A DNA stretch of 64,000 nt from Zychaea mexicana (taxonomy: Eukaryota > Mucoromycota > Mucoromycetes > Mucorales > Lichtheimiaceae). This document shows, in pieces, positions 1,197-31,820 of the stretch; position 1 is the stretch's first letter, and each line of letters starts with the position of its first letter. The translations under genes were made by a program, and so were the position numbers. The notes below the pieces were generated by a model that did not search any database, was not told the origin of the DNA, and worked only from the letters and a program-made list of their open reading frames with translations. The stretch is taken from contig NW_026516818.1 of assembly GCF_025766255.1 (NCBI RefSeq), positions 1 to 64,000 on the forward strand. Direction: 5' to 3'.

Positions 1197-1368
1197 TCGT
1201 TTAACAAGAAACGGCCCATATAACAACTCAATAAATCACAAAACAAACATTTATTAACCTTTCAAACATACTCTCCACAAAATAACAATAATAAGAAAAC
1301 CACACATATACAACCCATAAACATTACCTTAAATCCAACCAACAATAAGAAACCAAGCAAACAGCAAA

Positions 1369-4300
1369 ATGAGCAGTCAATCCAAGTACGCACCCCGAAC
1401 CTCTCGCGAAACCGACGACTATGTTGGATCCTCATCCGACATACCTCTGTTGGCACATGGCACCGATACATTGAGCTACAAGCCGAGACTCGTCGACTTT
1501 TGCGGCTATGAGGGCGAAGATTTCCGCTATTTCAGGGAGACCCTTGAGTCGTACTTTGCGATTGCAAACATTACCGATACCAAACGACAAGCCAGCATCT
1601 TGAATGCACAAGTCAAAAAATATGCACGCATTTTCCTGCAAGGATTGATCCGTGCTGACAATAAACTTGGAAGCGACTATCACGAATTGATCAAGCAGTT
1701 GGAACGAGAATATGTAACGCCAGACGTTATCGAATATTACAAGGACGCATTTGACCAAATCACGCAAGGAGAGGATGAACCCCCACGAATGTTCCTGGGT
1801 CGCATTCAGCAAGCTGCGGATCTGGCTGCCTTGTCTTCTGGTGAAGCTGATGCATTGATAGCGGCAAAATTTAAGTCAGGATTGTTGCCTCGTGTTAAGC
1901 AGCATTGCTACATGATGGGAGCAAACACCTTCGAACAATATAAGAAATTCGCATACGGTTATTGGCGAGGTCGACATGGAACCACCCTGTATCCTCAGGA
2001 TAACCCTTTCCTGCCACAAGCAGAGGAGGACAGAATCCCTACCTCATGGATAAGCAGAAATCAAACCCCTAAAGAAACCATAAAGAAGGCCCATACCAAA
2101 GCCTTCCGCCCACCTAATCTGAATAACGCCAGCGGTAGCACGACTCCTGCGATCGACGCACTCACCAAACAAATGCAAAACCTGGAATTATTCCAACATG
2201 AGTCGGCCGATGTCGATAACACCGCTCCGCAAAGCTTGGAAGGCATGCTGCGCCGCCTAATCCAGGAAGAAACGAAGAGAGTAGCTGAAAGTACCTTTAG
2301 AAACAACGATTATCGCTCGCGATATAACCGAAACCAAAACCGCAGTGATAATTACCAGCATAACGGTAACGGGAGGAACAACTCGTACCGCTCCAATGAC
2401 TATAACCGTCGTGATAGTTACCAACGGCCCTACAACTCGAACAGACGGGAAAACGAAACGCGTTACTCCCCACGAGAAGACGGAAATAGGGACCGTAACC
2501 ACCAACGCAACGATAGCAATAGGGAGCCACCCGCTCGACCTAACTCGCCTTCAGGAACGTTCGCCTTTATGGAGGAATATGACTATACACCGGTGGAAAG
2601 AGACCTGTATGAAGACGACGGGTATTTCGAAGATTGTGGGTCAGAGTACGAAACGGACTATGAGGACGACGAAGAACTGCATGTTCAAGATGACGAGCTG
2701 TACGCGGCTCAACAACCAGCAGTAAGATCGACCACACGACAATTACGCCCTCGCAACGAAGCAGGTAAGGTACAAAAGAACAATTCGCAAAAGAGAGTAG
2801 AATTTCGAGACCCTCCTGTTCGACGACGAAAGAAACAAGCCACGACCGGTCCCACGGTACCTCGTGATGAGCCCCTAACGAGACAGGTCCCCATGACAAC
2901 GCCCATTAGCAACCAAGTCAACACACAAACCAGACCAACACAGCCAACCCTTGCCGCACCTACCACAGGTCTACAATCAGCCTTCGGACAGACGGCCCTG
3001 TCCAAGAACAACACGATGCCGGCCGCGAAACAATGGACTCAGCTCAGAACCCCTACAGATAACATGGACATTGACTCACCATCGGAGGGAGCTGAGGTCA
3101 AAACGAAACAAAATACCTCGCCATTCGCACCTACACCACCTACCCCAGCAAAAAACAGAAGTGTAGCGGGAAGAGCCGCGCAAGAAAAATCGACCCCTCA
3201 GAAAAATAAAAATACACCCAAGAGAACCCAAAAATCGCCAACCCAAAATAGAAACAGAAAACCCGTAAACACAACCCAGACCAACATCAAACGTACCCCA
3301 TACGATGTCTCTGCAGACTTGCTAAGCAGAACAGCCGATATCAGTTTCGGTCAACTACTAGGCGTCGCTCCATCTCTACGACGACAAGTTACTAAAGCGT
3401 GTCGAGACACACGTACCTTGGCCGTATTAGATGAAGAGTCTGTACCGTCGCCCGCGACAACAGCGCTTTACACGACCTTCTTATTGTACGACACGCCCGT
3501 AAAGACCTTGGTAGATTCAGGCGCCAGCCGCACCTGTATGTCCCAACGTCTAGCACAAAAACTCGGTCTTGAGATCGATGAACCATCGACAGCTGTCTTC
3601 AAACTAGGCAATGGAGCCCGCCACGCTTCGTTGGGCATCATAAACAACGTAGAGTTGCAACCACACGGGACGGATTCTGTCCCTGCTGCAGTAGAAGTAC
3701 TACCCTCCTGTCCTAACGACCTTATTATCGGAAATAACTGGCTCAAGCAAGCCCAAGCTACGATCGACTATAAGACCAAGCTCTTATGGATACATCACGG
3801 CGAAACTCGGTCAATTCCCGTCACTTATGAACGACCAAAGTTGAGTCTAGAACAACCATGGGAAGAAGAACCCACTACAGATGACGACGAAGCGGCATCC
3901 GCCACGACAGAAGATTCGACCGCATCGACTACTGGAAACGAATCGTCAGACCAAGAGTCCTCGTCCCTAGCTGATGAGATGCTGACCAACGAATATTGGC
4001 TTGAGGATGAGTTGTTCGCCATTGTCGAAACCGCTCAGCCACTAGAATTGATAAAAGAACACGACACGCTGCATCTGATAACCAACGATTCTATCGACAT
4101 CGAAGCTGCATCCTACCAGACATATGAGATAGATATCCCAACAATATTGAAATCTTCCAACACCTATATCTTCGATACCACGCAAGCTTTACCTGATCAC
4201 ATTGGAATCCACTGCGGAATCCTCTACCCAACCGATAAAACTTTCAGAATTTCAATCATCAACATGTCAGACACGCAGAGCTTTACCTTCGGAGCTGATG

Positions 4301-5877
4301 AAATACTTGGGGAATTATACGCTGTCACCACCCATGACCAAGGCTACGAGCTGGTCATTGAGCCTAAGACGCCGCGACAAATAATCTCCATGCCTACCGA
4401 ACTTAAACCACTTACTACGGCACAACGAGAACTCTTCAATCTAGGAGAACTAGATCCAGAGCTACGAGCAGAATTCTACCATTTGATTACTCAATTCCAA
4501 GACATATTTGACTGGGACGGAGAGACTATTGGGAGAACAGATTTTATCAAACACGACATCATCACTGAAAAAGACACGGCTCCCATCCGTCACCGACCAT
4601 ACCGCATGAGCCCTTTGGAACTCAAACATCTCAAAATTGAGCTCGACAAGTATTGTAAAATGGGTATCATCCGGCCATCCAACAGCCCTTGGGCCGCACC
4701 CATTATCATGATTCGCAAGAAAAGTCTACCAGGCGACACCGAGCCACGGTATCGTCTCGTTGTTGACTATAGGAAATTGAACGCAGTAACACGCTTTGAT
4801 GCCTATGCAGGCGTGCCACGAATTGACGAGCTCCTGCACAACCTCACCGTTACCTCATCCACCGCCTTTAGCAGCCTTGACCTTTCTAAGGGATTCTATA
4901 ACGTGCCACTCAGCGAAGACGCTATCCCTAAGACTGCGTTCACCACCCGCTTTGGCCTGTATGAGTACTTACGCATGCCTATGGGCCTTGCTAACTCGGT
5001 ACAGACGCTCGGTCGCGTAATGAGTAGTTGCTTACGCGCCCTACTTAACCGCACTTGTCTTATTTACTGCGATGACTTGATTTGCTACGAAAAAGATCAG
5101 CGATCACATATCCGTAACCTGCATCACGTATTCTCCTGTTTACGCCGCGCTGGCTTGATCCTCAACCCTCAAAAGTGCAGTTTTTTCCAGAAAGAACTCA
5201 AATTCCTCGGCTACATTGTATCAGCAGAAGGAATCCAAACTGACCCTGCCAAAGTCGAAAAAATCGCTAACTTCGAACGGCCTCAAACCGTCAAAATGCT
5301 TAAAAGTTTCATCGGTTGCGCCTCCTATTACCGGTCATTCGTAAAAGGCTTTGCCAAAATTGCACGACCATTACACGAGATGACAAAAGATGGCACCATC
5401 AAGCTCCAGTGGACCCCGGACGCGGTTACCGCGTTCGAAGCGCTGAAGGAAGCACTCTGTACAAGCCCCATACTTGCCTATCCGGACTATAACAAACGAT
5501 TCGTCCTATGCTGTGACGGAAGCTCCCACGGATATGGTTGTGTCCTTAGCCAATACGGCGACGACGGCAAGGAACATGTCATTCTGTACCTCAGCAAAGG
5601 CCTGCAGCCAAATGAACGCTCATGGTCCGCCAGCAAACTCGAATGCGGCAGTGTCATTTTCGCCGTAACACGTCTAAGACCTTACCTTCTTGGCTCCAAA
5701 GAGAAATTTCTCATCCTGACCGATCACGCCAGTCTAAAGGGACTACTAAACGCAACAAACCTAACCGGCATTTTAGCCCGATGGGTGCTCACACTCTCCG
5801 AGTACTCCTTTGAAGTCAAATATCGACCTGGCAAAGAGAACAAGAATGCCGACTTTCTCAGTCGCTTAGGATATTAA
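1369..5877 (+). CDS. Gag-protease-RT-RNase H polyprotein
   Basis: A 1502-residue ORF. Residues about 40-250 resemble a retrotransposon Gag capsid region. A long Arg/Asn/Tyr-rich stretch (about 310-385) follows and probably binds RNA, as no CX2CX4HX4C zinc knuckle is visible. The aspartic protease motif DSGA is near residue 715, with IIGNNWL downstream. RT motifs include LVVDYRKLN (about 1130), LDLSKGFYNVPL, and YCDD (about 1232) in place of the more common YLDD/YIDD. RNase H carries CCDGSS (about 1381), TDHASL and a terminal ADFLSR. The ORF ends right after RNase H, so no integrase is fused. The start at 1369 follows a 190-bp leader. No stop or frameshift is visible, so it may be active. Confidence 0.92.
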   Translation: MSSQSKYAPRTSRETDDYVGSSSDIPLLAHGTDTLSYKPRLVDFCGYEGEDFRYFRETLESYFAIANITDTKRQASILNAQVKKYARIFLQGLIRADNKLGSDYHELIKQLEREYVTPDVIEYYKDAFDQITQGEDEPPRMFLGRIQQAADLAALSSGEADALIAAKFKSGLLPRVKQHCYMMGANTFEQYKKFAYGYWRGRHGTTLYPQDNPFLPQAEEDRIPTSWISRNQTPKETIKKAHTKAFRPPNLNNASGSTTPAIDALTKQMQNLELFQHESADVDNTAPQSLEGMLRRLIQEETKRVAESTFRNNDYRSRYNRNQNRSDNYQHNGNGRNNSYRSNDYNRRDSYQRPYNSNRRENETRYSPREDGNRDRNHQRNDSNREPPARPNSPSGTFAFMEEYDYTPVERDLYEDDGYFEDCGSEYETDYEDDEELHVQDDELYAAQQPAVRSTTRQLRPRNEAGKVQKNNSQKRVEFRDPPVRRRKKQATTGPTVPRDEPLTRQVPMTTPISNQVNTQTRPTQPTLAAPTTGLQSAFGQTALSKNNTMPAAKQWTQLRTPTDNMDIDSPSEGAEVKTKQNTSPFAPTPPTPAKNRSVAGRAAQEKSTPQKNKNTPKRTQKSPTQNRNRKPVNTTQTNIKRTPYDVSADLLSRTADISFGQLLGVAPSLRRQVTKACRDTRTLAVLDEESVPSPATTALYTTFLLYDTPVKTLVDSGASRTCMSQRLAQKLGLEIDEPSTAVFKLGNGARHASLGIINNVELQPHGTDSVPAAVEVLPSCPNDLIIGNNWLKQAQATIDYKTKLLWIHHGETRSIPVTYERPKLSLEQPWEEEPTTDDDEAASATTEDSTASTTGNESSDQESSSLADEMLTNEYWLEDELFAIVETAQPLELIKEHDTLHLITNDSIDIEAASYQTYEIDIPTILKSSNTYIFDTTQALPDHIGIHCGILYPTDKTFRISIINMSDTQSFTFGADEILGELYAVTTHDQGYELVIEPKTPRQIISMPTELKPLTTAQRELFNLGELDPELRAEFYHLITQFQDIFDWDGETIGRTDFIKHDIITEKDTAPIRHRPYRMSPLELKHLKIELDKYCKMGIIRPSNSPWAAPIIMIRKKSLPGDTEPRYRLVVDYRKLNAVTRFDAYAGVPRIDELLHNLTVTSSTAFSSLDLSKGFYNVPLSEDAIPKTAFTTRFGLYEYLRMPMGLANSVQTLGRVMSSCLRALLNRTCLIYCDDLICYEKDQRSHIRNLHHVFSCLRRAGLILNPQKCSFFQKELKFLGYIVSAEGIQTDPAKVEKIANFERPQTVKMLKSFIGCASYYRSFVKGFAKIARPLHEMTKDGTIKLQWTPDAVTAFEALKEALCTSPILAYPDYNKRFVLCCDGSSHGYGCVLSQYGDDGKEHVILYLSKGLQPNERSWSASKLECGSVIFAVTRLRPYLLGSKEKFLILTDHASLKGLLNATNLTGILARWVLTLSEYSFEVKYRPGKENKNADFLSRLGY

Positions 5878-6280
5878 CGTCATTACTATTTTCGACCAGT
5901 ACCCGGGAAGTCGTTAAAAGCATGAGGACACGCTTTTCTTTTTACCGGCGCAACCCGGCACCCCCTATTTACAACTTTTTGCTACACTTAAACAAACAAA
6001 ACACAATAAACCCACACAAAACACAAGAAAACAATATAACCCCACAAAAAAACAACTCCTTTCTACATATCCACACTTTCGCTTATAATCTTTTATTTTC
6101 GCTATTCACATTTTCTTACTCTTATCTACATGCATTTTCGCGCATTCAACTGCCGCGCTGATCAACACAACATTCTCATTTACCCAAACACAACTTACCC
6201 TTTTTAATTACAACACAAACCACACCATCATCTGACAACTGACAACTTCACAAATTCTGACAACTCTGACAATACACACA
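5878..6280 (+). other. Spacer between pol and integrase ORFs
   Basis: About 400 bp with stops in all forward frames separate RNase H from integrase. It is A/C-rich on the plus strand. Just before the integrase ATG it contains repeated tgacaact units (about 6233-6275). I see no strong GT...AG intron pair and no slippery site that would fuse the ORFs. It may hold a promoter or act as a 5' leader for integrase. Confidence 0.5.
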
Positions 6281-8035
6281 ATGGACACAAAGAAATTAGC
6301 TTTATTACATCATTATCTCAACACGCTAGAATACCCTCCGGGTATCACAAAGCAACAGGAACGATACCTAGCATCACAAAGCAAAAATTATCTCGTATAC
6401 AACGACCGCGTTTACCGACGACAAGGTGCCGGTATCCGCCTTGTACTCAACAAGCAAGAAGCCGACAATGCTATCTGGACATACCACTTCTATCCTACCG
6501 GCGGTGCTCATTATGCGCTACACACAACATACCAACGCATAGCACAACGCTATTACTGGGAAGGAATGCGACGCGACATACAGCTCACAATAGCACAATG
6601 CTCCCGATGTCAACGACATGGAAAACCCGAGAAAATCGAACTACTACACCCGATACCCGTTGAACCAGAACCATTCACGATGGTCGCACTAGATATCAAA
6701 CACCTCAGACCATCTCGTGCTGGTCACTCATACGTCATTGCAAGTATCGACTATCTGACGAACTACGTCAACGCAAAGCCGGTCCGCCTCGCAAACGCCA
6801 CAGAGGTCGCTCTATTCATATATCAAAACATCATCTGCACGCACTCACACATCAAAGTACTACTCACCGACAGAGGATTGCCAGTCAACAACAAAATCAT
6901 CGACGAAATCTGTAACAACTTCAATATCGAACACCGCATGGCGAGCGCTTTCTCACCTAGCGTAAACGGAAAAATTGAACGATGGAACCGCAGCCTAGCA
7001 CAAGGATTGAAGCGATTATCTAACGAAGAAAAAGCAGACTGGAGCGCGTACCTGCCCTCGCTGGTACTCAGTTACAATAGCCGCATCCACTCGACAACGA
7101 AGGCATCACCCTTCTACTTACTATACGGCCGTCACCCTTGGACACCGTTCGACAGATCCGTACCACAAATAGAAAGCAACACAGATGTGACAGCCTGGAC
7201 ACAAAAGGAATATGACACCTGGATGGACACACATCTCAGACTTCTCAGGAACATCCGGCAGAACGCAGCCGACACCATCAAAGTATCCCAGCAAAATCAA
7301 AAGAAAGCACTAGATCGGAAAATACTCGGCAAGAAAAAGCACCTGCTGCAACCACCGTTCAAAATTGGGGACGCAGTGCTAGTTTATCATAACGCCATCG
7401 AATCGTCGTTCTCAGCAAAAATGGAAGACATGTGGAATGGTCCTTACATTGTGCACCACAGCAACGGAAAACACGGATACACTCTTAAGACACTAGAAGG
7501 GAAAATGTTACGAGGCACGATACACGGAAACCGAATGCGTATATATACCATGCCCAACGTAGCGTTTCGACCGACATACACCTCCCGATACAAACAACCC
7601 GAAGAAACGATGTCGACACCCAACCATCCTGACATCCTCGCGTCCCTGGATGAAATCGCGCCGCCTGCAGGACCCCAAAACCAAGGCTACAGCCACGATG
7701 ACATCTTGGCTATCCTCGCGCAACTCGACGAGACGAAACTCTCCCCAGCTTTGGTAGACCGGGTCAGAGACCAACTCGAGCGGGAAAGCGTGGCGCGACG
7801 AATCCACGAAACACGAGCAGAAGTAGTTAATCTCCTCGTGCAAGAAATCTTTGACAAAGACGCATTATATCAACAATGCCGCCGTCACAACGCCCGACAC
7901 GCTGGACTCACAGCAATCTTCCGGGCCGTAGGCTTGCCTACTGGCGCATTAGATCCTTCGCACCCGTTCTGCAAGGCATTGACCAAAGCCTTTTCGGCTG
8001 CCGCCAGGGCACGACGTAATATAGTGAACGCTTAA
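6281..8035 (+). CDS. Integrase in a free-standing ORF
   Basis: A 584-residue ORF with the full retroviral-type integrase layout. The N-terminal H-H-C-C zinc domain ends in CSRCQRH (about 107-113). The catalytic triad is D in ALDIKHL (about 137), D in LLTDRGL (about 196) and E in NGKIERW (about 232). The last two are 35 residues apart, the usual DX35E spacing. A C-terminal DNA-binding-like region follows, then a tail of roughly 170 residues I do not recognise; no chromodomain is evident. Integrase is normally the last domain of Pol in this family, so its separation by stops and about 400 bp is unusual. The ATG at 6281 leaves the zinc domain complete. Confidence 0.9.
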   Translation: MDTKKLALLHHYLNTLEYPPGITKQQERYLASQSKNYLVYNDRVYRRQGAGIRLVLNKQEADNAIWTYHFYPTGGAHYALHTTYQRIAQRYYWEGMRRDIQLTIAQCSRCQRHGKPEKIELLHPIPVEPEPFTMVALDIKHLRPSRAGHSYVIASIDYLTNYVNAKPVRLANATEVALFIYQNIICTHSHIKVLLTDRGLPVNNKIIDEICNNFNIEHRMASAFSPSVNGKIERWNRSLAQGLKRLSNEEKADWSAYLPSLVLSYNSRIHSTTKASPFYLLYGRHPWTPFDRSVPQIESNTDVTAWTQKEYDTWMDTHLRLLRNIRQNAADTIKVSQQNQKKALDRKILGKKKHLLQPPFKIGDAVLVYHNAIESSFSAKMEDMWNGPYIVHHSNGKHGYTLKTLEGKMLRGTIHGNRMRIYTMPNVAFRPTYTSRYKQPEETMSTPNHPDILASLDEIAPPAGPQNQGYSHDDILAILAQLDETKLSPALVDRVRDQLERESVARRIHETRAEVVNLLVQEIFDKDALYQQCRRHNARHAGLTAIFRAVGLPTGALDPSHPFCKALTKAFSAAARARRNIVNA

Positions 8036-19859: not shown

Positions 19860-19946
19860 TGGATGTAAGGTGGACATAAGGTGGATGTAAGGTAGACAGA
19901 AGGTGGACGCAAGGTAGACACAAGGTAGATGCAAGGTAGACACAAG
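19860..19946. repeat. Short tandem array (caaggtagaca)
   Basis: Imperfect copies of an about 11-bp unit lie in the right arm of the fold-back element. The array resumes at 29466-29535 beyond the inserted transposon. Confidence 0.7.
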
Positions 19947-20154
19947 GGCGTCCTGCTATTAGTTGTCTAACCAAACATAATCTACTAGCTGTAATATAGA
20001 TAATAAAATTGCTATGACCGGTATAACTATCAGTGGCTGAAATAATTATTGATTTATAATTAAAATAATAAAAATTGATTTTTTTTATTTATATTAGTAG
20101 CCTCCCACGAGAAAAAAAAGAGCGATTGTTTAAAGTATATAACAGCAAATAAAA

Positions 20155-21278
20155 ATGTACACAACACAACACACTGAACAACTCGATATTGAAATTAAAA
20201 ATTTAATTGATAATAAATGGACTTTTCTTGATAAAGCTTAGCCTGAAATGCAACATAGATTTAATCATAGAACAGCTATTAAAGATATGAAGAATAATAC
20301 AATAAATGATATAAAGGATGTATTACTTCATAGATTTGGATTTATACCTGTATTTTATTTTCTTACAGTTTTATATAGAAATATTGAATATCCAGGGCCA
20401 TACCGCGAGATTGAAAAAGGACTTGCATTATTATATCATATAGTATTAGGTGTATCAGGAAAGGATATACATACTGTTATGCCATATGCAACATTTTATG
20501 ATTTATATAAGCAGTTCTGGATTACTAACTATAATGAATTGAATAAAAAGGTAAAACAAGATTTAGATAGGATGTTCTCATCACCACGTATTCGCATTCT
20601 ATCAGCCATAATAAAAAATCCAGATGGTTTTAAGAATGCTACACTATTTATTGATAGACATGATAGTAAAATAAAGTATTATAAACCAAATGAGTCACAT
20701 TCACAGTTATATTCATATAAATTAAAAGACCAAGCTATACGTACACAAGTTATACAGGATATGAATGAAATAATTACACATGTTTCAGTATCTGAAAAAT
20801 GTGCTATCGGAAATGATGATACTATGTTTATTAATATGAAACTATATATAAAAATAAGTGAGGCAGATTGTTTAGGAATGGATGGTGGATATAACTTATT
20901 TATACAAAAGTTTAAAGATAATGCGACAGATGCTAGATATAGTTTTTATGACCGTAATTTTTTACATCCATAAGAAAAGAACCAGGACAAAAGTTAACAA
21001 TCAATGAGACATACTTTAATAACAAGTTTGGATCATTTCGTTCAGCAATAGAAGCACAGTTCTCTATGTTAGGCTCTAAATTTGAACGATTTAATAATAA
21101 TCGTGCAGCATTGCAAATAACCGATATAAGATATTATAATATTCAGTTTCGTGTTGCTTGTATTCTTACTAATATATGGCGATTTGTAAATAAGTATAGT
21201 ATAGAGGTACAACCACATCATAAATTATGGTATGGATAAGATTTTGAATTCCCAAGTAAGAAAAACAAACTTGACTTA
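20155..21278 (+). pseudogene. DDE transposase, first part (Rep-bearing element)
   Basis: Begins at the ATG at 20155 and is over 80% similar by eye to the transposase at 23930-26462. Catalytic regions are readable: the first Asp region TLFIDRHDSK (Gly replaced by Arg next to it), LGMDGGYNLF with the second Asp, and the SAIEAQFSM block with the likely Glu. Damage includes TGG to TAG at 20239, a one-base deletion near 20970 causing a frameshift, and TAA at about 21237. The gene is then cut at 21278 by the sister element and resumes at 26742 in frame with the chromodomain. Confidence 0.8.
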
Positions 21279-21493
21279 GGAGACCAGTCGAGGTTATATT
21301 GATTATACTCTGGTCTATTAGTAGTGTCTGGTTGGATAGTTGAAAGAAAATAGTATAGCCAAATTAATTTTTATTAATTTAATCTATACACGATAGTCTT
21401 GGCATGCATATATTTAAAAATTTTGAAAAGTAAAAATTGAATTATTATTTATATAAAAAAAATAACTCACTAAAAGATTTAATCAATTTCAAA

Positions 21494-23902
21494 ATGGTTG
21501 CTTTAAATACGTTTCTTCCCTTAAACCATATCCAATTAAGCAACAACTTGTGTAAGGAACTAGATTACTTCTTGGCTTCAGAATTTGACCATTTTATTAC
21601 AGAAAATATAATACAAAAAATTAAAAAAAAAATAAATAAAAAAATAAAAGATTTGTTTTCATCTGATTATTTCTTATATTTAAATATTAATAATAGTTTT
21701 TGTACTCACAAATTCAAGCGTGGAAAAAAAGAAGGAGAGTTTTGTGCTAAAAAGATCAAGACAAATTTAAATGGCCAAGATCCTGATTATCATTGTTGTA
21801 AACATAGTAAAAAACATATTAAAAAACAAAAGAAAAAGCAAGAAATAAATAAAGTTATAGATATAATTAATGAGAAGTGCTACGGGTACGAGTTTTTTTT
21901 CTTACGCATACGAGTTTTTCTAAGCGGGTTTTTAAGGTGGTTGTGTTGTGAAACCTCATATGGCCAATCCGATTGCCGTCTTACACGTACGAGTTTTTTG
22001 CTAAAGGAACTGAACAGCATATGCGTACGAGTTTTTGTCTACCCATCAGTCTTCCCTTTTTTTAGATGGCCTTGTTAAAATAACTAGCTATTGTCATACT
22101 TCTTGATGTAAAACTGCTCATTAAATCGGCGCAATGGATTTAATTACGCTGTTCTTTTCGAAATCTTACAGGATTCTGTTCTGCCACTATACAGTGATGG
22201 CATATACAAGTTTTGCATTCCTTCTTTTCTTTAAGTTCTTGGCCTTTTCCCAATATTAGATGGCACACTAAGCTCGATATCAGGTTTCCAATAAATCTAG
22301 CAATTCATTTGTTTGTGTGGAGGAGTTTTCTACTGAGTCCACATAGGTAACAATCACTTATAAAAGAACTCTGGGCAGCGCTCTTTTACGCTTACGAGTT
22401 TTTTTTAATCTGGTTCCACGTAAATCATAATTAGCGGGGACAGATTTAGACAATTGTCTGCTTACGCGTACGAGTTTTTTCTATCCTGGTTCTACGTAAA
22501 TCATGACTAGCTGGGACAAATTTTGACAGCTATCTACTTACGGGTACGACTTTTCTTAAGCCTGGTTACAGTGAGTTATTTGTTAATCTGAAGACCGTTC
22601 AAACAGCTCCATAGGAAGTTGGAGGTTCATAGGAGACTTGCTCACTGTACTTTCGAGTACCATATGCTTTTCAAATGTAGAAAGACTATGATCTGATATT
22701 TTAAGTAGAAATAATAGTGAGGGTAAGTACTAACTTCCTACTTCATAGTAAGACCAAGACTCTAACATCGAAACATTGCGCCTTACATACATGACTTACA
22801 TTCAAATGATCCTTGCACCCGAAACAGCCATTTTATCTATAGCTGACGATCTGGAAGAAGGTACTGTAGAAGGAGCAAAAATCTAAATGAATGGGGATCT
22901 AATGCAGATAGAAGGTGTTGAAGATCTCACGTCTTATGCACGAACTCGCATGTGGAAAAGTGCATATTTCGTTCCATTGTTTCTAGAAACGTATAAATAG
23001 TATTGACAATTTTCATTACCTTTTTCCCGATAATATCTTGTTGTAACAACCCATTTGTTAATCTCTCCTCCATTTCATTTCTATTTTTCTCTTTCAGACA
23101 CAATTACCGTTATTCACCTTATACTTACTCTCACATGAATTAGCGTCTTAAATCTCTTATGTCTTCTTTTGCCTTTTACCTTTTTATAATAAACACCGAT
23201 TCCCTACTGCAACAGCTTATGCTCAGGGAATGTTTTACACGTGGAACCAGATTAAAAAAAACTCGTAAGCGTAAAAGAGCGCTGCCCAGAGTTCTTTTAT
23301 AAGTGATTGTTACCTATGTGGACTCAGTAGAAAACTCCTCCACACAAACAAATGAATTGCTAGATTTATTGGAAACCTGATATCGAGCTTAGTGTGCCAT
23401 CTAATATTGGGAAAAGGCCAAGAACTTAAAGAAAAGAAGGAATGCAAAACTTGTATATGCCATCACTGTATAGTGGCAGAACAGAATCCTGTAAGATTTC
23501 GAAAAGAACAGCGTAATTAAATCCATTGCGCCGATTTAATGAGCAGTTTTACATCAAGAAGTATGACAATAGCTAGTTATTTTGACAAGGCCATCTAAAA
23601 AAAGGGAAGACTGATGGGTAGACAAAAACTCGTACGCATATGCTGTTCAGTTCCTTTAGCAAAAAACTCGTACGTGTAAGACGGCAATCGGATTGGCCAT
23701 ATGAGGTTTCACAACACAACCACCTTAAAAACCTGCTTAGAAAAACTCGTACGCGTAAGAAAAAAAACTCGTACCCGTAGCACTTCTCATAATTAATATA
23801 CCTATAAAAATAAAAACTGAAAAAAAGAAAAAAAAAAGAAAACCATTCAAAATTATAGTAGGTAATCCTTTTTCCTTATGTTTTGATAATATTCTTCCAT
23901 AA
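21494..23902 (+). pseudogene. Cys/His-rich cargo gene, split by a MULE
   Basis: From the ATG at 21494 the frame is open to 21871, then resumes at 23798 after the MULE and the second copy of its duplication, ending at TAA 23900-23902. The uninterrupted gene would encode about 160 residues. The N-terminal half is helical. A central motif reads CTHKFKRGKKEGEFC, then about 18 residues to YHCCKH. This C-x-H ... RGK-x3-G-x2-C ... C-C-x-H pattern resembles small zinc-binding modules of large DNA viruses and some transposons. The C-terminus is Lys-rich. It occupies the place Rep has in the outer element. Confidence 0.65.
21872..23788. mobile_element. Non-autonomous MULE
   Basis: A 1917-bp element with inverted arms of about 550 bp, starting GAGAAGTGCTACGGG and ending in its complement. 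It is flanked by a perfect 9-bp duplication ATAATTAAT (21863-21871 and 23789-23797). Long arms and a 9-bp duplication are diagnostic of Mutator-like elements. The arms contain repeated CGTACGAGTTTTTT motifs that could bind a transposase. The centre encodes only short peptides (for example from 22793), so mobility would need a transposase supplied elsewhere. Confidence 0.9.
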
Positions 23903-23929
23903 ATTACTATATATATGTCTATATAATCT

Positions 23930-26462
23930 TTATGCTACATTACTTAGACTATGCTCTTCAATATATGCTTTTAACAATTCTTTTTGATTAAATTTATCAA
24001 CTGTTAACCAACTATTATCATCTATGCCATATCCAACCCATTTAACTTCAAAAATATATCTATTATTTATATATGCATGCCCTACAATGTTTTCAATTTC
24101 ATATGAATCATTATGCTCTTTATTTCTTTGTTCCTTTCCCTTTTGATTTTTTCTACATAAGTTATTATTAGTTTCTTCTTCACTATCTATTATCATATCT
24201 ACTGGCTGATTTATATTAAGGGATAAAAATTTTTGTTGAATATCAATCATTTCATTATATTCAGCATTTACCTTTTGTTCATTTGAAAATACTAAATCAA
24301 GTTTATTTTTCTTACTTGGAAATTCAAAATACTTTGTATGCCATAATTTATGATGTGGCTGTGCTTCTATGTTATATTTATCAACAAATCTCCATATATT
24401 AGTTATAATATATGCTACACGGAACTGAATATTGTAATACTTTATATCAGATATTTGTAGTGCTGCACGATTATTATTGAAACGCTCAAATTTAGAACCA
24501 ATCATAGAAAATTGTGCTTCAATTGCTGAACGGAATGAGCCAAACTTATTATTAAAATGTGTTTCATTAAGTGTAAGTTTTTGTCCAGGTTCTTTTCTTA
24601 TAGGATGTAGGAAATTTCTATCATAAAAACTATAACCAGCATCCATTGCATTCTCTTTAAATTTCTGTATAAATAGATTATAACCACCATCCATACCTAG
24701 ACAATCTGCTTCACTATTTTTTTTATATAGCTTCATTTGTAAAAACATAGTACCATCATTACCAATTGCACATTTCTCAGATATAGAAACATGTGTAATA
24801 AATTCATTCATATCTTGTATAACCTGTGTACGTATAGCTGGTCCTTTTAGTTTATATGAATATAATTGTGAATGTGATTCACTTGGTTTATAATATTTAA
24901 TTTTAGAATCATGTCCATCAATAAATAACGTAACATTTTTAAAACCATCTGGATTATTTATTAATGATGATAAAATGCGTATACGTGGTGATGAGAACAT
25001 GTTATCAAGGTCTTGTTTTACTTTTTTATTTAATTCACTATAGTTAGTAATCCAAAACCGCTTATATAAATCATAAAATGTTGCATATGGCATCACATTA
25101 TGCATATCCTTTCCTGATACACCTGATACCATATGATATAACAATACAAGCCCTTTTTCTATTTCACGATAAGGACCTGGATATTCAATATTTCCATTAG
25201 GGATCCGTATCAGAACCGTAGAACCGGAACCGAACCGAACCGAAACCGAGAAAATACGGTTCGGTTCCTGTCAAGAACCGAACCGGAACCGAACCGGTTC
25301 TGTATAAGTAGAACCGAAGAACCGAGAGGCAGAAGATTGCAATCAGCGATTTTGGTAATTAGTATAAAGTAGGCTATAATGGAAGTTACGAACAATGTTA
25401 TTCCGAAAAGACCACGAAGTAGTGTATTTGCAAGCCATACTTTATTAAAAAACTTAACAAAACCTGCAAAAGCAGAAGGGAGTAAAAAATAGTAAAGAAG
25501 AGAAGAGAAAAAAATAAAAAAACACTTCTTCTGACGGCAGCTTGCTTTCTCCGCCCATGACGCACATCATTACTTGTTCCTCTACTTTGCTACCCACAAT
25601 GCATTTTTCTCCATGACGTACTACTTTACTAGATTTATCATGGCTTCTCGATCAGTTTTATCAAGTTTGTGCATTCCGTTTGAGATTGCGCATTCTGGGG
25701 CTCATAACAGAATTATCTTACCCATTCACCCTTTGCCTTTTATGAGACACTATACACTATACACACGTAGAGACACAGCAGCTGTATGTACTGCCGGTTG
25801 TGGTTCAATTCCTCCAATGTTACGATAACATATTGTACTAGTAATACTAAGTCGCTCTACGTAAGTACTATAAGCTCCACTTTTTTTTGTAAAAACTGTG
25901 CTTCAATCTTTTAACCATGCAATGACCCACATCGTATGAGAATGTTTACATTCTGTTTCTCTTATTCATTTTGAGATCGCTGTTCAATGTACAATAATAA
26001 ACTATTCTTTTTTACTGCAGTATTCAAGTATACCGCGACATTTGAACACACACATCAGCTTTCATTTAAAGATACCGAATCTTGCCTTTTTTATATACAT
26101 GATGGGTTCGGTTCTTCGGTTCGGTTCTTCGGTTCTACGGTTCTCGTCGGTTCTAGTCGGTTCGGTTCTTGCTTTAGACGGTTCGGTTCGGTTCCCTTTA
26201 AGAACCGAACCGAACCGAACCGTGCGGATCCCTAATTTCCATATAAAACAGTAAGAAAGAAATACACAGGTATATATCCAAATCTATTTAATAATACATC
26301 TTTAATATCATTAATTGTATTATTTTTCATATCTTTTATAGCTGTTCTATGATTAAATCGATGATGAATTTCAGGCCAAGGTTTTTCTAGAAAATTCCAT
26401 TTATTCTCAATTAATTTTTTAATTTCTATATTAAGTTGTTCAATAGCTGGTGCTGTGTTCAT
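23930..26462 (-). pseudogene. Chromodomain DDE transposase, split by a hAT element
   Basis: Starts at the ATG at 26462 (MNTAPAIEQL, matching the start of the other copy). It is interrupted after TVLYGN by the hAT element (25198-26234) and continues from 25189 to the stop at 23930. Apart from that insertion the frame is open over 495 codons. DDE signatures are FIDGHDSK, LGMDGGYNLF and SAIEAQFSMIGSKFERF. The last is typical of the DDE_4/Harbinger fold. A C-terminal chromodomain follows (about 440-490), with YEIENIVGH, YIFEVKWVGY and NSWLTVDKF. A chromodomain would direct insertion to marked chromatin; it is common in gypsy integrases but rare here. Confidence 0.85.
25198..26234. mobile_element. 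Non-autonomous hAT-like element
   Basis: A 1037-bp element with ends TAGGGATCCG and CGGATCCCTA, flanked by a perfect 8-bp duplication ATTTCCAT (25190-25197 and 26235-26242). The 8-bp duplication and TAGGG ends are hAT hallmarks. Dense subterminal GAACCGAACCG repeats lie at both ends and may be transposase-binding sites. There is no transposase gene. Confidence 0.9.
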
Positions 26463-26741
26463 ATTGTTCGATCTTTTAACTTGAAAAAGCAATCAGGAAA
26501 ATCTAATAACCCTAGACAGAAATGTCAAATTATTTATAAAATAAATGTTTTTGTTTATTATATTTAGAGCACAACCCAATATAAATTTAAAAATTCAATT
26601 TTCTTATTTTTAAATAATTTAATTAAATAAAAAATATTTTAAATTTGATCAGTAATAGTTATATCGACCATAGAAAATTTATTCGGTAGAGTATAGATAA
26701 TAAACACAAATTGGCTAGACAACTAATAGCAGGACGCCTTA

Positions 26742-27101
26742 GTATTTTCAAATGAGCAAAAAGTAAATACTGAATATAACGAAATGGTTGACATGCAGCA
26801 GAAATTTCTACAGCTTAACATTAATCAATCAATAGATATGGCTATAGATAGTGAGGACGAAACTGAAAATAATACATGTAAATGCAAGAGAAAAAATCAA
26901 AGAGAACAGAGAAATATAGAACATAGTAATTCATATGAAATTGAGAAGATTGTAGGACATGTGTATACTGATAATAAGTACATATTTGAGGTTAAGTGGG
27001 TTGGATATAGTGTAAAGGATAATAGTTGGTTAACAGTTGATAAGTTTAATTCCTGGGAAATGCTACATGAATATATGGCCACACATGGTATTCAGCTCTA
27101 A
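26742..27101 (+). pseudogene. DDE transposase, chromodomain part (Rep-bearing element)
   Basis: Continuation of the gene at 20155-21278 after the sister element. It opens with the LVFSNEQK equivalent, passes an acidic/Lys linker, and ends in a chromodomain (YEIEKIVGH, YIFEVKWVGY, NSWLTVDKF) at a stop at 27099-27101. The last 39 bp overlap the 3' end of the Rep gene on the other strand. This part has no stops. Confidence 0.82.
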
Positions 27102-28922
27102 ATTAATTTCTTTACTTATTTGCTTATTAAAAAATTTCATATTGAAACTGACCGCATCAACCTTTTGTTTACTTGCCCAATTATATTTATGTTTTATGCA
27201 TTCATTAGTTATACTTGTACTTATATTAGTATCTGTTAATTTATTTTTAACGTCAGTTTCTTTTGTTATATCTATATCATCTATTATAGCCTTTTTTATA
27301 TCCTTATGCTTTTTCAAATATCCTTTTGGCTGTATTTCTTCTACTATTTGCTTGTTTCTCCGTTTATTTTTATTGTGTCTTTTTTTCTTTTTACGTTTTG
27401 GTATATTATTTGGTATGTTGCAGTCACTGCTTTTCTCTGATTCAGATGTACTTACATCTATGTATTTATGTTTCTCTATATCTTCTGGTGGGTTTTCCCA
27501 ATCAGTAGTATCATTTACAACATCATCACATTTTATATCATTAAACACATCTTCCCAATGCCTACAATCTACTGATGATGGTACCTTTACAGTTGACCAT
27601 CCTCTATTATTTTGTTGAGGCGGATTATGTTGTTTATTGTTCTGTGTATTATTACTATTATGTTTTTCTTCTTGTTCCTTCATATATTCTTCTGTGTCAG
27701 CTAATTCTTGTAGTTCCTCTACTGTTTTATCCATCGGTGTATATTTTTTAATATCATCCTGACCACTATTATGTGCATAACGGATAAATGTATGCTGATC
27801 TTGGTATTCGTTTTCGAATTCACCTTTGTATAAGTCCTCATATATATCCATGTTTTCATAATACATGAATTTATTTTCATAATCCATCACCTTCATTGTG
27901 TATGGATTCCATATTATATGACCTTTAGGGTTCTTATCAACATAGATAATATATAAACGATTGAGCGTTGGCTCTAACTCATATACTGATTTGTTTTTGT
28001 ATAACATGTGCGGCATATAGTTACTATTCAGTATTATTGGCATATTTTTCTTTTTAGTTATTGACTTTGTGAATTTGCCATTAAGTTTTAACTGTGTTCC
28101 TTCTAACATTTGGTTTAAAAATGTTAATTTGAAATCAGAACCTGTTTCTTCATTATACATAAAATCATAATCATCATCCTTATAATCTGACCAATCATTT
28201 TCTTTATTCATTAGATATGCTCGATGACCACCTTGTTCTAATACATCAATGTTATATGTCTTACCTACATTTGATGGACCTACAATCCAGTATTGTGGTA
28301 TCTTATTTTTGCCACCAAACATTGTTTCAATACCAAACATAGACCACATATATAATTTATTTCCAGGGTTATTTTCCATATCTGCATCATGAAAGTAAGG
28401 ATTTAATTTTGATTTTACAGTATCATATTTCCATAGCAATTCTGGATATATTGCGGTAGCCTTCCACATATTAAGCTGCTTAGTAATTAATTGATATCCA
28501 AGTAACTGTTGGTGCATTTTTCTGGTTTTAATTTCATAATTTGGATCCATATTATAACAAATATAATCTTTTCCTTTCATACAATAGCTAATAGACTTTT
28601 GTGGATTACCACCTGGTTTAATATTTGGAGTAACACCATCAATAGTAAAGAATTTACGTGCTGTTTTTGTGTCGAATCGCTCATCCATTTGTATCTATAT
28701 GTGTACATGTTTCTCATTGGTTTCTGGTGCAATTTTATCACATGCAATTGCCTTTTCAATTCGATAACCAATACGTTTATGTTTTATAAACCATTCCATG
28801 ATTTGTTCTTTTGATAAATGGAAGTCCTTACAAATATATGTGAACAGCCCTTTAGTGTTTTGGAATCGGAATTCTTTGCCGCCCTACGAGGAATCTGCAC
28901 CAGAGGTGTTACCCTCTAACAT
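27063..28922 (-). pseudogene. CRESS-type Rep: HUH endonuclease and SF3 helicase
   Basis: From the ATG at 28922 to the stop at 27063 there are 620 codons. The HUH domain holds motif I (LFTYI), motif II (HVHI-IQ) and motif III (YCMKGKDY). The SF3 helicase holds Walker A GPSNVGKT (about 215-222), a Walker B-like DFMYNEE (about 253-259) and motif C IILNSN (about 296-301). A Lys-rich tail of over 200 residues follows, much longer than in ordinary viral Reps. Two TAG codons break it: 28884-28886 (CAG in copy 1) and 28695-28697 (TGG in copy 1, inside motif II). From 28688 down it is open. It is convergent with the transposase. Confidence 0.88.
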
Positions 28923-28984
28923 TGCATCGGAAAATTGAGGATTTGAGGATTTGAGGAATCTCACATATTCTCGAATTCTTCCAA

Positions 28985-29209
28985 TTATTTTATTGCATGT
29001 ATTATTTTTAGTTTTTTATCAACTTTAGCCTGTGTAAGGTCTTTTTCGAGTTCTGACCTCAGTTGTGTGACAAGAGGTTCATACTCAATATGCTGATGGT
29101 TTTCAGCAAGGTGTTTTGCTCTTTTAATTAAGAGCGTCAATGTAACTCCTAATATAGGAACAAATTCAGCCATAATGGCTAAGAATGCGAGAAGGTTGAG
29201 TTGGTTCAT
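28985..29209 (-). CDS. Small membrane-type ORF upstream of Rep (copy 2)
   Basis: A 74-residue ORF. It matches the ORF at 10124-10318 except for a T-to-A-type change that removes the earlier stop and adds ten Lys-rich residues. One hydrophobic segment is followed by charged helices. It lies about 60 bp before the Rep start on the same strand. It could be a separate protein or a 5' exon; no clear donor-acceptor pair decides this. Confidence 0.55.
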   Translation of the reverse strand: MNQLNLLAFLAIMAEFVPILGVTLTLLIKRAKHLAENHQHIEYEPLVTQLRSELEKDLTQAKVDKKLKIIHAIK

Positions 29210-29762
29210 GTCGATTGTTGAAGTAATACTGTAAAAATAAAAAATATAACAAATATATTTTGCTTTATATTCTGTGGTATTATTTTTATATTAAAAAAAA
29301 TTCAATTTTTATTTTTTTTCAAAAATTTAATTGTATGTATGCCAAGACATTCGTGCATGAATTATTTCAATAAAAATTAGTTTGGCTATCCTGACATATC
29401 TTAGCTAATTAGTCATCTAGGGTTACTAGACTGCATTAAAATTATCATAACTATGGCCGGTCCCCAAGGTAGATACAAGGTAGACACAAGGTGGATGTAA
29501 GGTGGGCTGAAGGGGGACGTAAGGTGGACGCAAGGTGGCCTTTTCACGAGTTTCTGAATTTAAAATTAAACAGGTATAATATAACCTAAGGTGCATCCAC
29601 AACTCGCTGTATGATGGATTTCGTAAGCCACTAAGCATAAAACCTATATTGAATTTTCGTAATCCTGGAAAACCAGGGATTTTAGCAGCGCTTTATACTC
29701 TATTAAACAGTACGTCCAGTCAGGTCATCAGTGTAGAAATATACAGAAATATAAGATAGAGC

Positions 29763-30902: not shown

Positions 30903-31820
30903 ATGCCAAACAACAGCAACAACCACAACAACTTTCAAAGCTTGATGTGGACACCCGCCAGTTAATCATCAGATCCTCAGCAACAGCAGCAGACACAGCA
31001 ACGGCAAGATTCAGAAGCACCGATGCAAGCACAAGAATCCCAAGTTCAAGATGCATTGCCTGCAACAGCGGCCATTGATGGTGATGACAATGATGGCAGC
31101 AACGACATGACATCAACTCCACCCGGTTCGCAGACACCTGTTCGTACTTCTACACGACGCCATACATGGGACGAGGCTCACATCGACGCTCTCATTACTG
31201 CTGTTAGAACTAGATACGATAGACTGAAGACTGTCATTGAAACGCAAGCCAAAGGCCGCATCTGGAACGAAATACTTTCTGAATATGTTGCAGCTGATTT
31301 GTTGGGTCGAAGTAAAGAAGCATTGCAGAAGAAATGGCAAGATCTGGTCGATGAATATCGCGATGTTAGGGCTATGATTCGCAACAGTGGTGAGAACGGC
31401 CCTTCAGGTCAGGAGCGATGGTGCTACTACGACGCTGTAGACAGAATTGTGGGAACTGACCCTGCAATTGTACCTCCTGTCACGATGGATTCCCTCGATG
31501 GCCTCATTGTCAATAGCACCCGACGAGAAAGGGATAACGATGACGATGTCAGCAAGCGGTCCACACAGCGACGACGAACAGCGGCATTTCAAGAGCTTGT
31601 CCTTGAGAATGCCGATCGGCAAACCGATCGCCTCATTGCCAGCATCAGCGAGGCATTCCAGCGGTTTGAGGAAGCAGAAGACCGGCGTTCGCGAGAGGCG
31701 CAGGAAGCAGAAGACCGCCGGCATGATATGTACTTGCAGACACTAAGAAATTTGTTTGGTAGCCCTACAAACACAAATAGAAGTGGAGAGCCTAGTAATT
31801 TTAACGAAGAAGAACAATAA
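30903..31820 (+). pseudogene. Harbinger-type Myb/SANT-like protein
   Basis: The frame from the ATG at 30903 is broken by one TAA (about 30963). It is otherwise open to 31820, with a usable ATG at 31023 giving 265 residues. Residues about 45-130 of that form are a Myb/SANT-like DNA-binding domain (HTWDEAHIDALI...GRSKEALQKKW). A C-terminal coiled coil rich in Glu/Arg follows (EEAEDRRSREAQEAEDRR). This is the usual partner protein of Harbinger transposases, which helps bind the element ends. A convergent transposase remnant lies at 32091-32507, giving the classical two-gene layout. The shorter form could still be made. Confidence 0.7.

What the first reader, a model, noticed from the sequence alone, without database searches (positions are those of the whole stretch)
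19947..29465. A cut-and-paste DDE transposon that also carries a CRESS-virus-type Rep/helicase
A PIF/Harbinger-like element with readable ends (GG-C/G-G-T/A-CC), a 3-bp duplication and a DDE transposase fused to a chromodomain has a full Rep gene as its second gene. That Rep combines HUH motifs I-III with an SF3 helicase. Harbinger elements normally pair the transposase with a Myb-like protein. A Rep could nick and replicate an excised circle by rolling circle, so copy number could rise without host repair. I know of Rep genes integrated in fungal genomes, but not of one inside a DDE transposon.
Basis: partly seen in the sequence, partly recalled or inferred. Interest (0 to 1): 0.95.

Follow-up and report, generated by a model that had tools for sequence, protein, structure and literature searches.

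The report
Jumping gene carrying a virus-type Rep
In a fungal genome, a cut-and-paste jumping gene carries, in the place where several of its relatives keep a small helper gene, a replication enzyme of the kind used by small circular DNA viruses, and the enzyme shows signs of having been kept by selection.

Summary
Window 19947-29465 is one DDE transposon (element A) with a 3-bp duplication (AAG). It holds a DDE_Tnp_4/chromodomain transposase (Tnp) and, tail-to-tail, a Rep with geminivirus-type HUH and SF3 motifs. The genome search gave 86 Rep matches. 41 of 55 close Tnp matches have a convergent Rep match within 4 kb (17 at exactly 12 bp), against 1 of 45 distant ones. Of 40 listed left ends, 11 pair with a right end at 4,031-4,075 bp. 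13 of 27 elements show exact 3-bp duplications; in those 13, Rep lies between the ends. Between deep Rep lineages dN/dS is 0.07 (HUH) and 0.06 (SF3), so Rep looks like a selected element gene. Relatives, B included, can carry a small Cys/Lys-rich ORF in the Rep slot. Rolling-circle amplification of an excised circle is plausible but unproven: no origin or circle found, and 14 of 29 Rep copies share a stop in motif II. A decayed Rep-plus-transposase element is published from truffle (Liu 2011).

The parts
19947..29465 (.). Element A, whole (9,519 bp with nested element B; 4,056 bp by arithmetic without B and one TTA)
   Evidence: Ends match those of other family members; AAG on both sides
19944..19946 (.). 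AAG, left target-site duplication
29466..29468 (.). AAG, right target-site duplication
19947..20156 (.). Left (L) end of A, GGCGTCCTGC...
   Evidence: 40 matches listed in the own genome out of 77 first-look candidates
29316..29465 (.). Right (R) end of A, reads GGGGACCGGCC inward
   Evidence: 40 matches listed in the own genome out of 66 first-look candidates
20155..21278 (+). Element A transposase, first part (DDE_Tnp_4 region), broken by stops and a frameshift
   Evidence: DDE_Tnp_4 E=0.078 and 0.00019 for the two pieces, both below the curated cut-off
26742..27101 (+). Element A transposase, last part with chromodomain, after nested element B
   Evidence: Chromo E=1.7e-6, above its cut-off
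27063..29209 (-). Element A Rep gene: N-terminal region, HUH endonuclease, SF3 helicase, basic C-terminal region; this copy has one frameshift and two in-frame stops
21279..26738 (-). Element B, nested inside A's transposase, opposite orientation, itself carrying two insertions
   Evidence: TTA at 21276-21278 and 26739-26741; ends GGAGACC / GGACGCC (read; inverted pairing with A)
26235..26462 (-). Element B transposase, N-terminal part
23930..25195 (-). Element B transposase, main part with DDE_Tnp_4 and chromodomain
   Evidence: DDE_Tnp_4 E=2.9e-8; Chromo E=2e-5, just under its cut-off
21494..21889 (+). Element B second gene (ORF2), Cys/Lys-rich, in the slot where A has Rep; cut by the foldback element, so the last residues of the listed frame are not its own
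   Evidence: 150 relatives listed in the own genome; 22 of 60 Tnp matches have one convergent within 3.5 kb
21872..23788 (.). Foldback element (561-bp arms, 99%) inserted in B, 9-bp duplication ATAATTAAT
25198..26234 (.). 1-kb insertion with TAGGGATCCG ends and 8-bp duplication ATTTCCAT, splitting B's transposase

Best explanation
Element A belongs to a family of ~4.05-kb cut-and-paste transposons of the DDE_Tnp_4 (PHIS-like) kind, in what is probably a mucoralean fungus near Circinella. In this family the slot of the usual second gene holds a geminivirus-type Rep (HUH nickase plus SF3 helicase). Shown: structure, exact 3-bp duplications, conserved two-gene tail-to-tail layout, and a selection signal on both Rep domains. 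Inferred: Tnp cuts and inserts the element; Rep nicks and unwinds element DNA, most likely initiating extra copying of an excised or newly cut element before reinsertion; this gives a benefit that keeps Rep. Whether a circle exists, where the origin is, and at which step Rep acts are not shown.
For: Rep: 86 genome matches, some of them pieces of one copy. Tnp-Rep convergent within 4 kb in 41 of 55 Tnp matches >=65% identical to B's Tnp (37 of the 41 within 1 kb, 17 at exactly 12 bp; two of the 41, on C12, are pieces of one copy), and in 1 of 45 below 65%. 11 of 40 listed L ends pair with an R end at 4,031-4,075 bp (one of the 11, C53, lacks the outermost R bases). 13 of 27 exact 3-bp TSDs. Ratio of mean dN to mean dS of Rep: 0.63 (24 pairs, dS<0.05), 0.35 (20), 0.52 (16), 0.23 (18), 0.30 (4), 0.17 (71 pairs, dS 0.4-1), so a fall overall but not a smooth one; by domain in diverged pairs 0.07 HUH and 0.06 SF3 against 0.23 and 0.31 for the N- and C-terminal parts. 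In the 30 best Rep matches, catalytic residues are kept in 26 of 29 (both His), 28 of 29 (Tyr), 29 of 30 (Walker A), 30 of 30 (Walker B) and 30 of 30 (motif C). Rep profile matches four solved Rep sequences, E 3e-9 to 6e-9; Gemini_AL1 in 9 of 11 members. Rep relatives in Circinella minor and Rhizopus stolonifer.
Against: No conserved origin stem-loop or nonanucleotide recognised (a limited look). No circle could be tested. 14 of 29 Rep copies carry one and the same stop in motif II, so many copies were moved with a broken Rep, perhaps helped in trans. The four Rep-only elements examined keep Rep DNA but each Rep has lesions: stops in all four, the motif II stop in two, a changed motif II His in one. 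Related elements, B included, spread with ORF2. The end blocks shared with B and Z are not Rep-specific (by eye). By eye, no Tnp-Rep pair has both genes free of stops and frameshifts.
Confidence: 0.55

Rival explanations
1. Rep is a transposition accessory factor, not a replicase: it took over the job of the small ORF2/Myb-like second protein (binding ends, unwinding, handling cut strands) in ordinary cut-and-paste movement.
For: Rep occupies the slot and orientation of ORF2. B looks like a mosaic in which a Rep-lineage Tnp with a foreign 3' tail is joined to ORF2, so the two genes seem exchangeable. No origin recognised.
Against: Both the nickase and the helicase active sites are conserved, with dN/dS 0.06-0.07; mere end binding would not need both.
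Confidence: 0.3
2. Rep is passive cargo captured once and carried along.
For: Captured genes are common in transposons (recalled); young copies have dN/dS 0.63 and many stops; 14 of 29 copies share a stop in motif II.
Against: Deep-lineage dN/dS of 0.06-0.07 in the catalytic domains.
Confidence: 0.05
3. The whole thing is a circular virus or plasmid that picked up a transposase to integrate, so the replicon, not the transposon, is the backbone.
For: A circle of ~4.05 kb with two genes facing away from a joint R-L region would look like a CRESS genome (inference). The Rep half is a fine mosaic of deep lineages while the Tnp half is uniform, as in recombining ssDNA viruses (recalled).
Against: The Tnp family is larger (756 first-look candidates), and relatives with ORF2 have the same layout. 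No relative found in IMG/VR, phage or plasmid collections at the sensitivity of those tools. No capsid gene recognised in A.
Confidence: 0.08
4. Chance neighbours: a decayed Rep insertion lying beside or inside an unrelated transposon.
For: The window copy alone, with nested B and minisatellite flanks, could look so.
Against: Fixed 12-bp junction in 17 pairs, fixed 4.05-kb size, shared ends and TSDs.
Confidence: 0.02

Closest known systems
Geminivirus-like transposon of Tuber melanosporum (Liu et al. 2011, PMC3198968; passages and section 8 read)
   Same: Multi-copy fungal element with a Rep-like ORF and transposase ORFs between terminal inverted repeats.
   Different: There: interrupted Rep, one interrupted and one truncated transposase, 37-bp TIRs, no obvious TSD, transposase family not named in the text read. 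Here: 3-bp TSDs, two-gene family with fixed junction, open Rep frames in some copies and a signal of purifying selection.
PHIS superfamily (PIF/Harbinger, ISL2EU, Spy, Pangu, Nuwa; Han et al. 2015, PMC4482050; passages read)
   Same: DDE transposase of a related kind (by the Pfam match), 3-bp TSD, a second gene; the passage gives ~4,124 bp for candidate autonomous PIF/Harbinger elements.
   Different: TSDs here are not TWA; second gene is Rep (or ORF2), not Myb/SANT or YqaJ; transposase carries a chromodomain ('chromodomain' has 0 hits in that paper).
Harbinger elements with tail-to-tail genes in Ectocarpus (PMC12477816; passages read)
   Same: Two tail-to-tail genes, 3-bp TSD.
   Different: No Rep mentioned in the passages read; 'HUH' has 0 hits there.
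PHISTA and other fungal transposons carrying TET/JBP (PMC12730594; passages read)
   Same: Fungal DDE transposons with an unusual enzyme as extra gene.
   Different: The extra gene is a dioxygenase; TA duplications for PHISTA.
CRESS-DNA / geminivirus Reps
   Same: HUH catalytic domain plus SF3 helicase in one protein.
   Different: N-terminal ~110 aa and C-terminal ~260 aa extensions; borne by a transposon.
Helitrons (recalled)
   Same: HUH enzyme with a helicase in a eukaryotic transposon.
   Different: Helitrons lack DDE transposase and TSDs and use a different helicase type (recalled).

Membership tests
PHIS / PIF-Harbinger | DDE_Tnp_4-type transposase | tested here: met
   PF13359 E=2.9e-8 for B's Tnp, above its cut-off; A's two broken pieces match below it; relatives
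PHIS / PIF-Harbinger | 3-bp target-site duplication | tested here: met
   13 of 27 exact; mispaired control 33 of 702; 0 of 27 at 4 bp
PIF/Harbinger (narrow sense) | TSD sequence TWA | tested here: not met
   TSDs seen in the 13: AAG, TTA, ATG, AAT, TGT, TTT (two copies, one flank), GAG, CAA, ACT, CAA, GAG, TGA; B has TTA
PIF/Harbinger | Second gene with Myb/SANT domain | tested here: not met
   Second gene is Rep in A, ORF2 in B; no Myb/SANT Pfam match to either
PIF/Harbinger | Terminal inverted repeats | tested here: inconclusive
   Ends GGCGTCC and GGGGACC are only partly alike
PIF/Harbinger (as in Ectocarpus) | Two tail-to-tail genes | tested here: met
   Convergent Tnp and Rep, 12-bp gap in 17 pairs
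CRESS-type Rep | HUH motifs I, II, III with catalytic Tyr | tested here: met
   Gemini_AL1 in 9 of 11 members, but L012 alone is below the Pfam cut-off; four solved Rep sequences E 3e-9 to 6e-9; one relative (P0002) has HYY in motif II
CRESS-type Rep | SF3 helicase domain | tested here: met
   Walker A, Walker B and motif C conserved in A1 and in the copies; motif names recalled; only a weak Pfam RNA_helicase match in 1 of 11; fold prediction did not finish
CRESS-type replicon | Origin stem-loop with conserved nonanucleotide | tested here: inconclusive
   Limited look: one recalled motif scanned in the window copy, aligned ends read by eye, three junctions folded; one unconserved match at 29223 near the Rep start
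CRESS-DNA virus | Circular ssDNA genome | not testable with these tools
   Only assembled genomic DNA is available
CRESS-DNA virus | Capsid gene | tested here: not met
   Only Tnp and Rep recognised in the window copy of A; other 4.05-kb copies were not read in full
Helitron | No TSD, no DDE transposase (recalled) | tested here: not met
   3-bp TSD and DDE transposase present

The most novel reading that the evidence does not exclude
A eukaryotic transposon with two engines: a DDE transposase excises and inserts it, and a virus-type Rep copies the excised, circularised DNA by rolling circle, so copies multiply off the chromosome before they land. Fine mosaicism of the Rep half would come from strand switching, and the Rep-only derivatives would be parasites of the replication step.
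Probability: 0.35. Interest if true: 0.93.

Novelty: new variant of a known kind. Interest (0 to 1): 0.78.

Why it matters
The additional proteins of Harbinger-like transposons are said to have unknown functions (Han et al. 2015, passage). Here that slot holds an enzyme of known chemistry under apparent selection, so the role of the slot becomes testable. It also gives a concrete, multi-copy case of a virus-type replication gene inside a cut-and-paste transposon, a link between two replication strategies usually treated as separate.

Tried and rejected
Concatemer idea: seven head-to-tail R-15bp-L junctions share one spacer (up to 3 mismatches). I first took them as rolling-circle multimers. 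The spacer plus L end gave 6 matches, all six at those junctions; an R-R pattern gave 0; all 3 exact R-L matches within 30 bp have that spacer. But the left partner at C115 has its own TSD (TGA), and Z in C51/C194 fits its own TSD (ATT) if its end is placed one base further out, so side-by-side insertion plus recombination explains part of it. Searches for the empty site were inconclusive. I do not use these junctions as evidence for circles.

Origin: nothing recognised in a limited look. Passive cargo: disfavoured by dN/dS. Free viral or plasmid relatives: none found in IMG/VR with Rep, Rep profile or Tnp, nor in phages or plasmids with Rep. Divergent extra Rep lineages: a distant Rep query (P0002) returned 65 matches, which by eye lie at or within a few kb of places. 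The first tree had element C113 out of frame; corrected, where the added A-window piece was out of frame and is not used. Only 7 Rep+ Tnps were sampled, support 0.83-0.85, so a single capture is only modestly supported. Shared longest contig length 4459 of Rep P0002 and Tnp P0028 suggests a distant Rep-Tnp pair but could be chance. In one search, 15 loci were tried and 14 entered (L024 dropped). In one search, 29 of the 30 loci were used (L029 left out). In one search I entered 120 of the 150 ORF2 matches; one search added the other 30, which raised the count from 21 to 22 of 60. Two of those 60 Tnp matches (C120, C83) had a Rep match 1.7-3.8 kb off.

Full report
What is in the window. Element A runs from 19947 to 29465 and is flanked by AAG on both sides. 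On the plus strand it holds a transposase with DDE_Tnp_4 and Chromo domains; on the minus strand, tail-to-tail, a Rep gene. The interval holds a second element, B (21279-26738), inserted into A's transposase with TTA on both sides and in opposite orientation. B carries its own transposase, split by a 1-kb insertion (25198-26234, 8-bp duplication), and a small Cys/Lys-rich gene, ORF2, cut by a foldback element (21872-23788, 9-bp duplication). A without B and one TTA is 4,056 bp. The window copy of A is broken: its Tnp has an early stop, a frameshift and a late stop, and its Rep has a frameshift and two in-frame stops.

Is Rep part of the transposon? The window lies in a 50.3-Mb assembly of 305 contigs. 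Rep gives 86 matches there, several of them pieces of one copy. The Tnp search listed 100 matches out of 756 first-look candidates. Of the 55 at least 65% identical to B's Tnp, 41 have a Rep match convergent and within 4 kb (37 within 1 kb, 17 at exactly 12 bp); of the 45 more distant, 1 has. R end and L end each gave 40 listed matches. Of the 40 L ends, 23 have a partner R end within 20 kb, 11 of them at 4,031-4,075 bp; one of the 11 (C53) lacks the outermost R bases. I read the flanks of those 23 plus four Rep-only elements: 13 of 27 have identical 3-bp flanks, none identical at 4 bp, against 33 of 702 for mispaired flanks. Two of the 13 (C273) share a flank and are not independent. Of the 14 without a match, C46b, C79a and C174 share a left flank with a matched copy, so recombination between copies explains some of them. 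The 13 have Rep between the ends; Tnp was also seen in 9, was not in the capped list for C273a, and three (C68, C140, C115; 2.5-2.7 kb) are Rep-only elements. So Rep DNA travels even where most of Tnp is lost, though each of the four Rep-only copies examined has lesions in Rep.

What is Rep? Open copies give about 703 aa: an N-terminal ~110-aa part, an HUH domain, an SF3 helicase and a basic C-terminal part. Motifs: LFTYI, HVHIWIQ-type HxH, YCMKG-type YxxK, GPSNVGKT, YNEE, LNSN (motif names recalled). A profile of 11 relatives matches four solved Rep sequences, E 3e-9 to 6e-9; a fifth hit is a designed helical protein. One of the four, 1l2m, is a geminivirus Rep domain by recall. Gemini_AL1 is found in 9 of 11 members, though the genome copy L012 alone is below the Pfam cut-off. 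Relatives are few: 10 and then 16 proteins, including Circinella minor and Rhizopus stolonifer. None was found in viral contigs, phages or plasmids at the sensitivity of those tools.

Is Rep used? For 18 Rep copies (153 pairs), the ratio of mean dN to mean dS is 0.63 for 24 pairs with dS below 0.05, then 0.35, 0.52, 0.23 and 0.30 in the classes between, and 0.17 for 71 pairs with dS 0.4-1: recent copies drift, but the lineages that founded them were selected. By domain (14 sequences, pairs with pS>0.15), the ratios are 0.23 N-terminal (73 pairs), 0.07 HUH (57), 0.06 linker plus SF3 (55), 0.31 C-terminal (66; decayed tails may inflate it). Pairs are not independent and copies recombine, so I treat these as a pattern, not as a test with a P value. 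Tnp between the Rep+ lineage and B gives 0.11-0.13. Against this, 14 of 29 Rep copies carry the same in-frame stop in motif II, with 5 changes on a tree of recombining sequences. So a large part of the recent spread happened with a truncated Rep, helped in trans or not needing Rep.

Where did the arrangement come from? Of 60 Tnp matches without a close Rep, 22 have an ORF2 relative convergent within 3.5 kb, including B and its near-copy on C212. The other 38 were not resolved. Seven Rep+ Tnps group together (support 0.83-0.85), next to B and a Circinella minor protein, P0018. B is 87-92% identical to a Rep+ Tnp over its first 300 residues, but its last 60 residues are as close to an ORF2-type element (65%) as to the Rep+ one (63%), while those two are 49% alike. 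P0018 ends like A's Tnp, not like B's (by eye). I read this as module exchange at the 3' end of Tnp, with B the likelier recombinant; which gene was there first is open. In 16 pairwise comparisons the Rep half of the element reads, by eye, as a fine mosaic of at least three deep lineages, while the Tnp half is 93-100% alike between full copies.

How it probably works. Tnp excises and inserts the element (family knowledge plus TSDs). Rep keeps both the nicking and the helicase sites under selection, so a job that needs both is likely; starting replication of element DNA is the known job of this enzyme class (recalled). Whether this happens on a circle is not shown. I recognised no origin in a limited look.

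What is known. Liu et al. 2011 (PMC3198968; passages and section 8 read) describe a Tuber melanosporum element with an interrupted Rep-like ORF and two damaged transposase ORFs, 37-bp TIRs and no obvious TSD. That is a real precedent for Rep plus transposase in one element. Han et al. 2015 (PMC4482050; passages) give TWA TSDs and Myb/SANT partners for PIF/Harbinger; neither holds here. PMC12477816 (passages) reports tail-to-tail genes in Ectocarpus Harbinger elements. PMC12730594 (passages) reports TET/JBP genes in fungal transposons. PMC6668415 (passages) surveys HUH replicons and has no hit for 'fung'. In the listings of nine searches I saw no other report of Rep in a DDE transposon; most listed papers were not opened, the library holds open-licence PMC papers only, and Repbase entries could not be searched.

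Verdict.

Noticed in passing
G000 C115, C174, C51, C79, C303, C53, C194 (L033-L039): Seven head-to-tail R-end / 15-bp / L-end junctions with nearly the same spacer TG(A/T/G)ATTTTTAAAATT, although the partners are A-A, A-Z or Z-A. Not fully explained.
   Followed up: partly
L035 and L039 (E2), L037 and L038 (E1): A ~1.1-kb element 'Z' with A-like ends and, in L037, a single ORF of 293 aa that shares a short motif (SSNPxxSDAML) with the Rep linker; no domain search was run on it.
   Followed up: partly
L001-L030 except L029: The same in-frame stop in Rep motif II in 14 of 29 copies.
   Followed up: partly
L003-L026, Rep half: Fine mosaic structure: short stretches switch between deep Rep lineages while the Tnp half is nearly uniform.
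   Followed up: partly
window 21872-23788: Foldback element with 561-bp arms 99% alike, repeated TACGNGTACGAGTTTTT-like units and a 9-bp duplication; Mutator-like by TSD length (recalled).
   Followed up: partly
window 25198-26234: 1-kb insertion with GGTTCGGTTC-type repeats near its ends, termini TAGGGATCCG, 8-bp duplication; hAT-like by TSD length (recalled).
   Followed up: partly
window 1333-8035: LTR-retrotransposon-type ORFs: protease, reverse transcriptase, RNase H, integrase.
   Followed up: no
window 30966-31820: ORF with Myb/SANT-like DNA-binding domain just outside element A; no link to A tested.
   Followed up: no
window 19862-19946 and 29466-29547: 11-bp minisatellite (AAGGTGGACGC-like) that flanks element A on both sides.
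   Followed up: no
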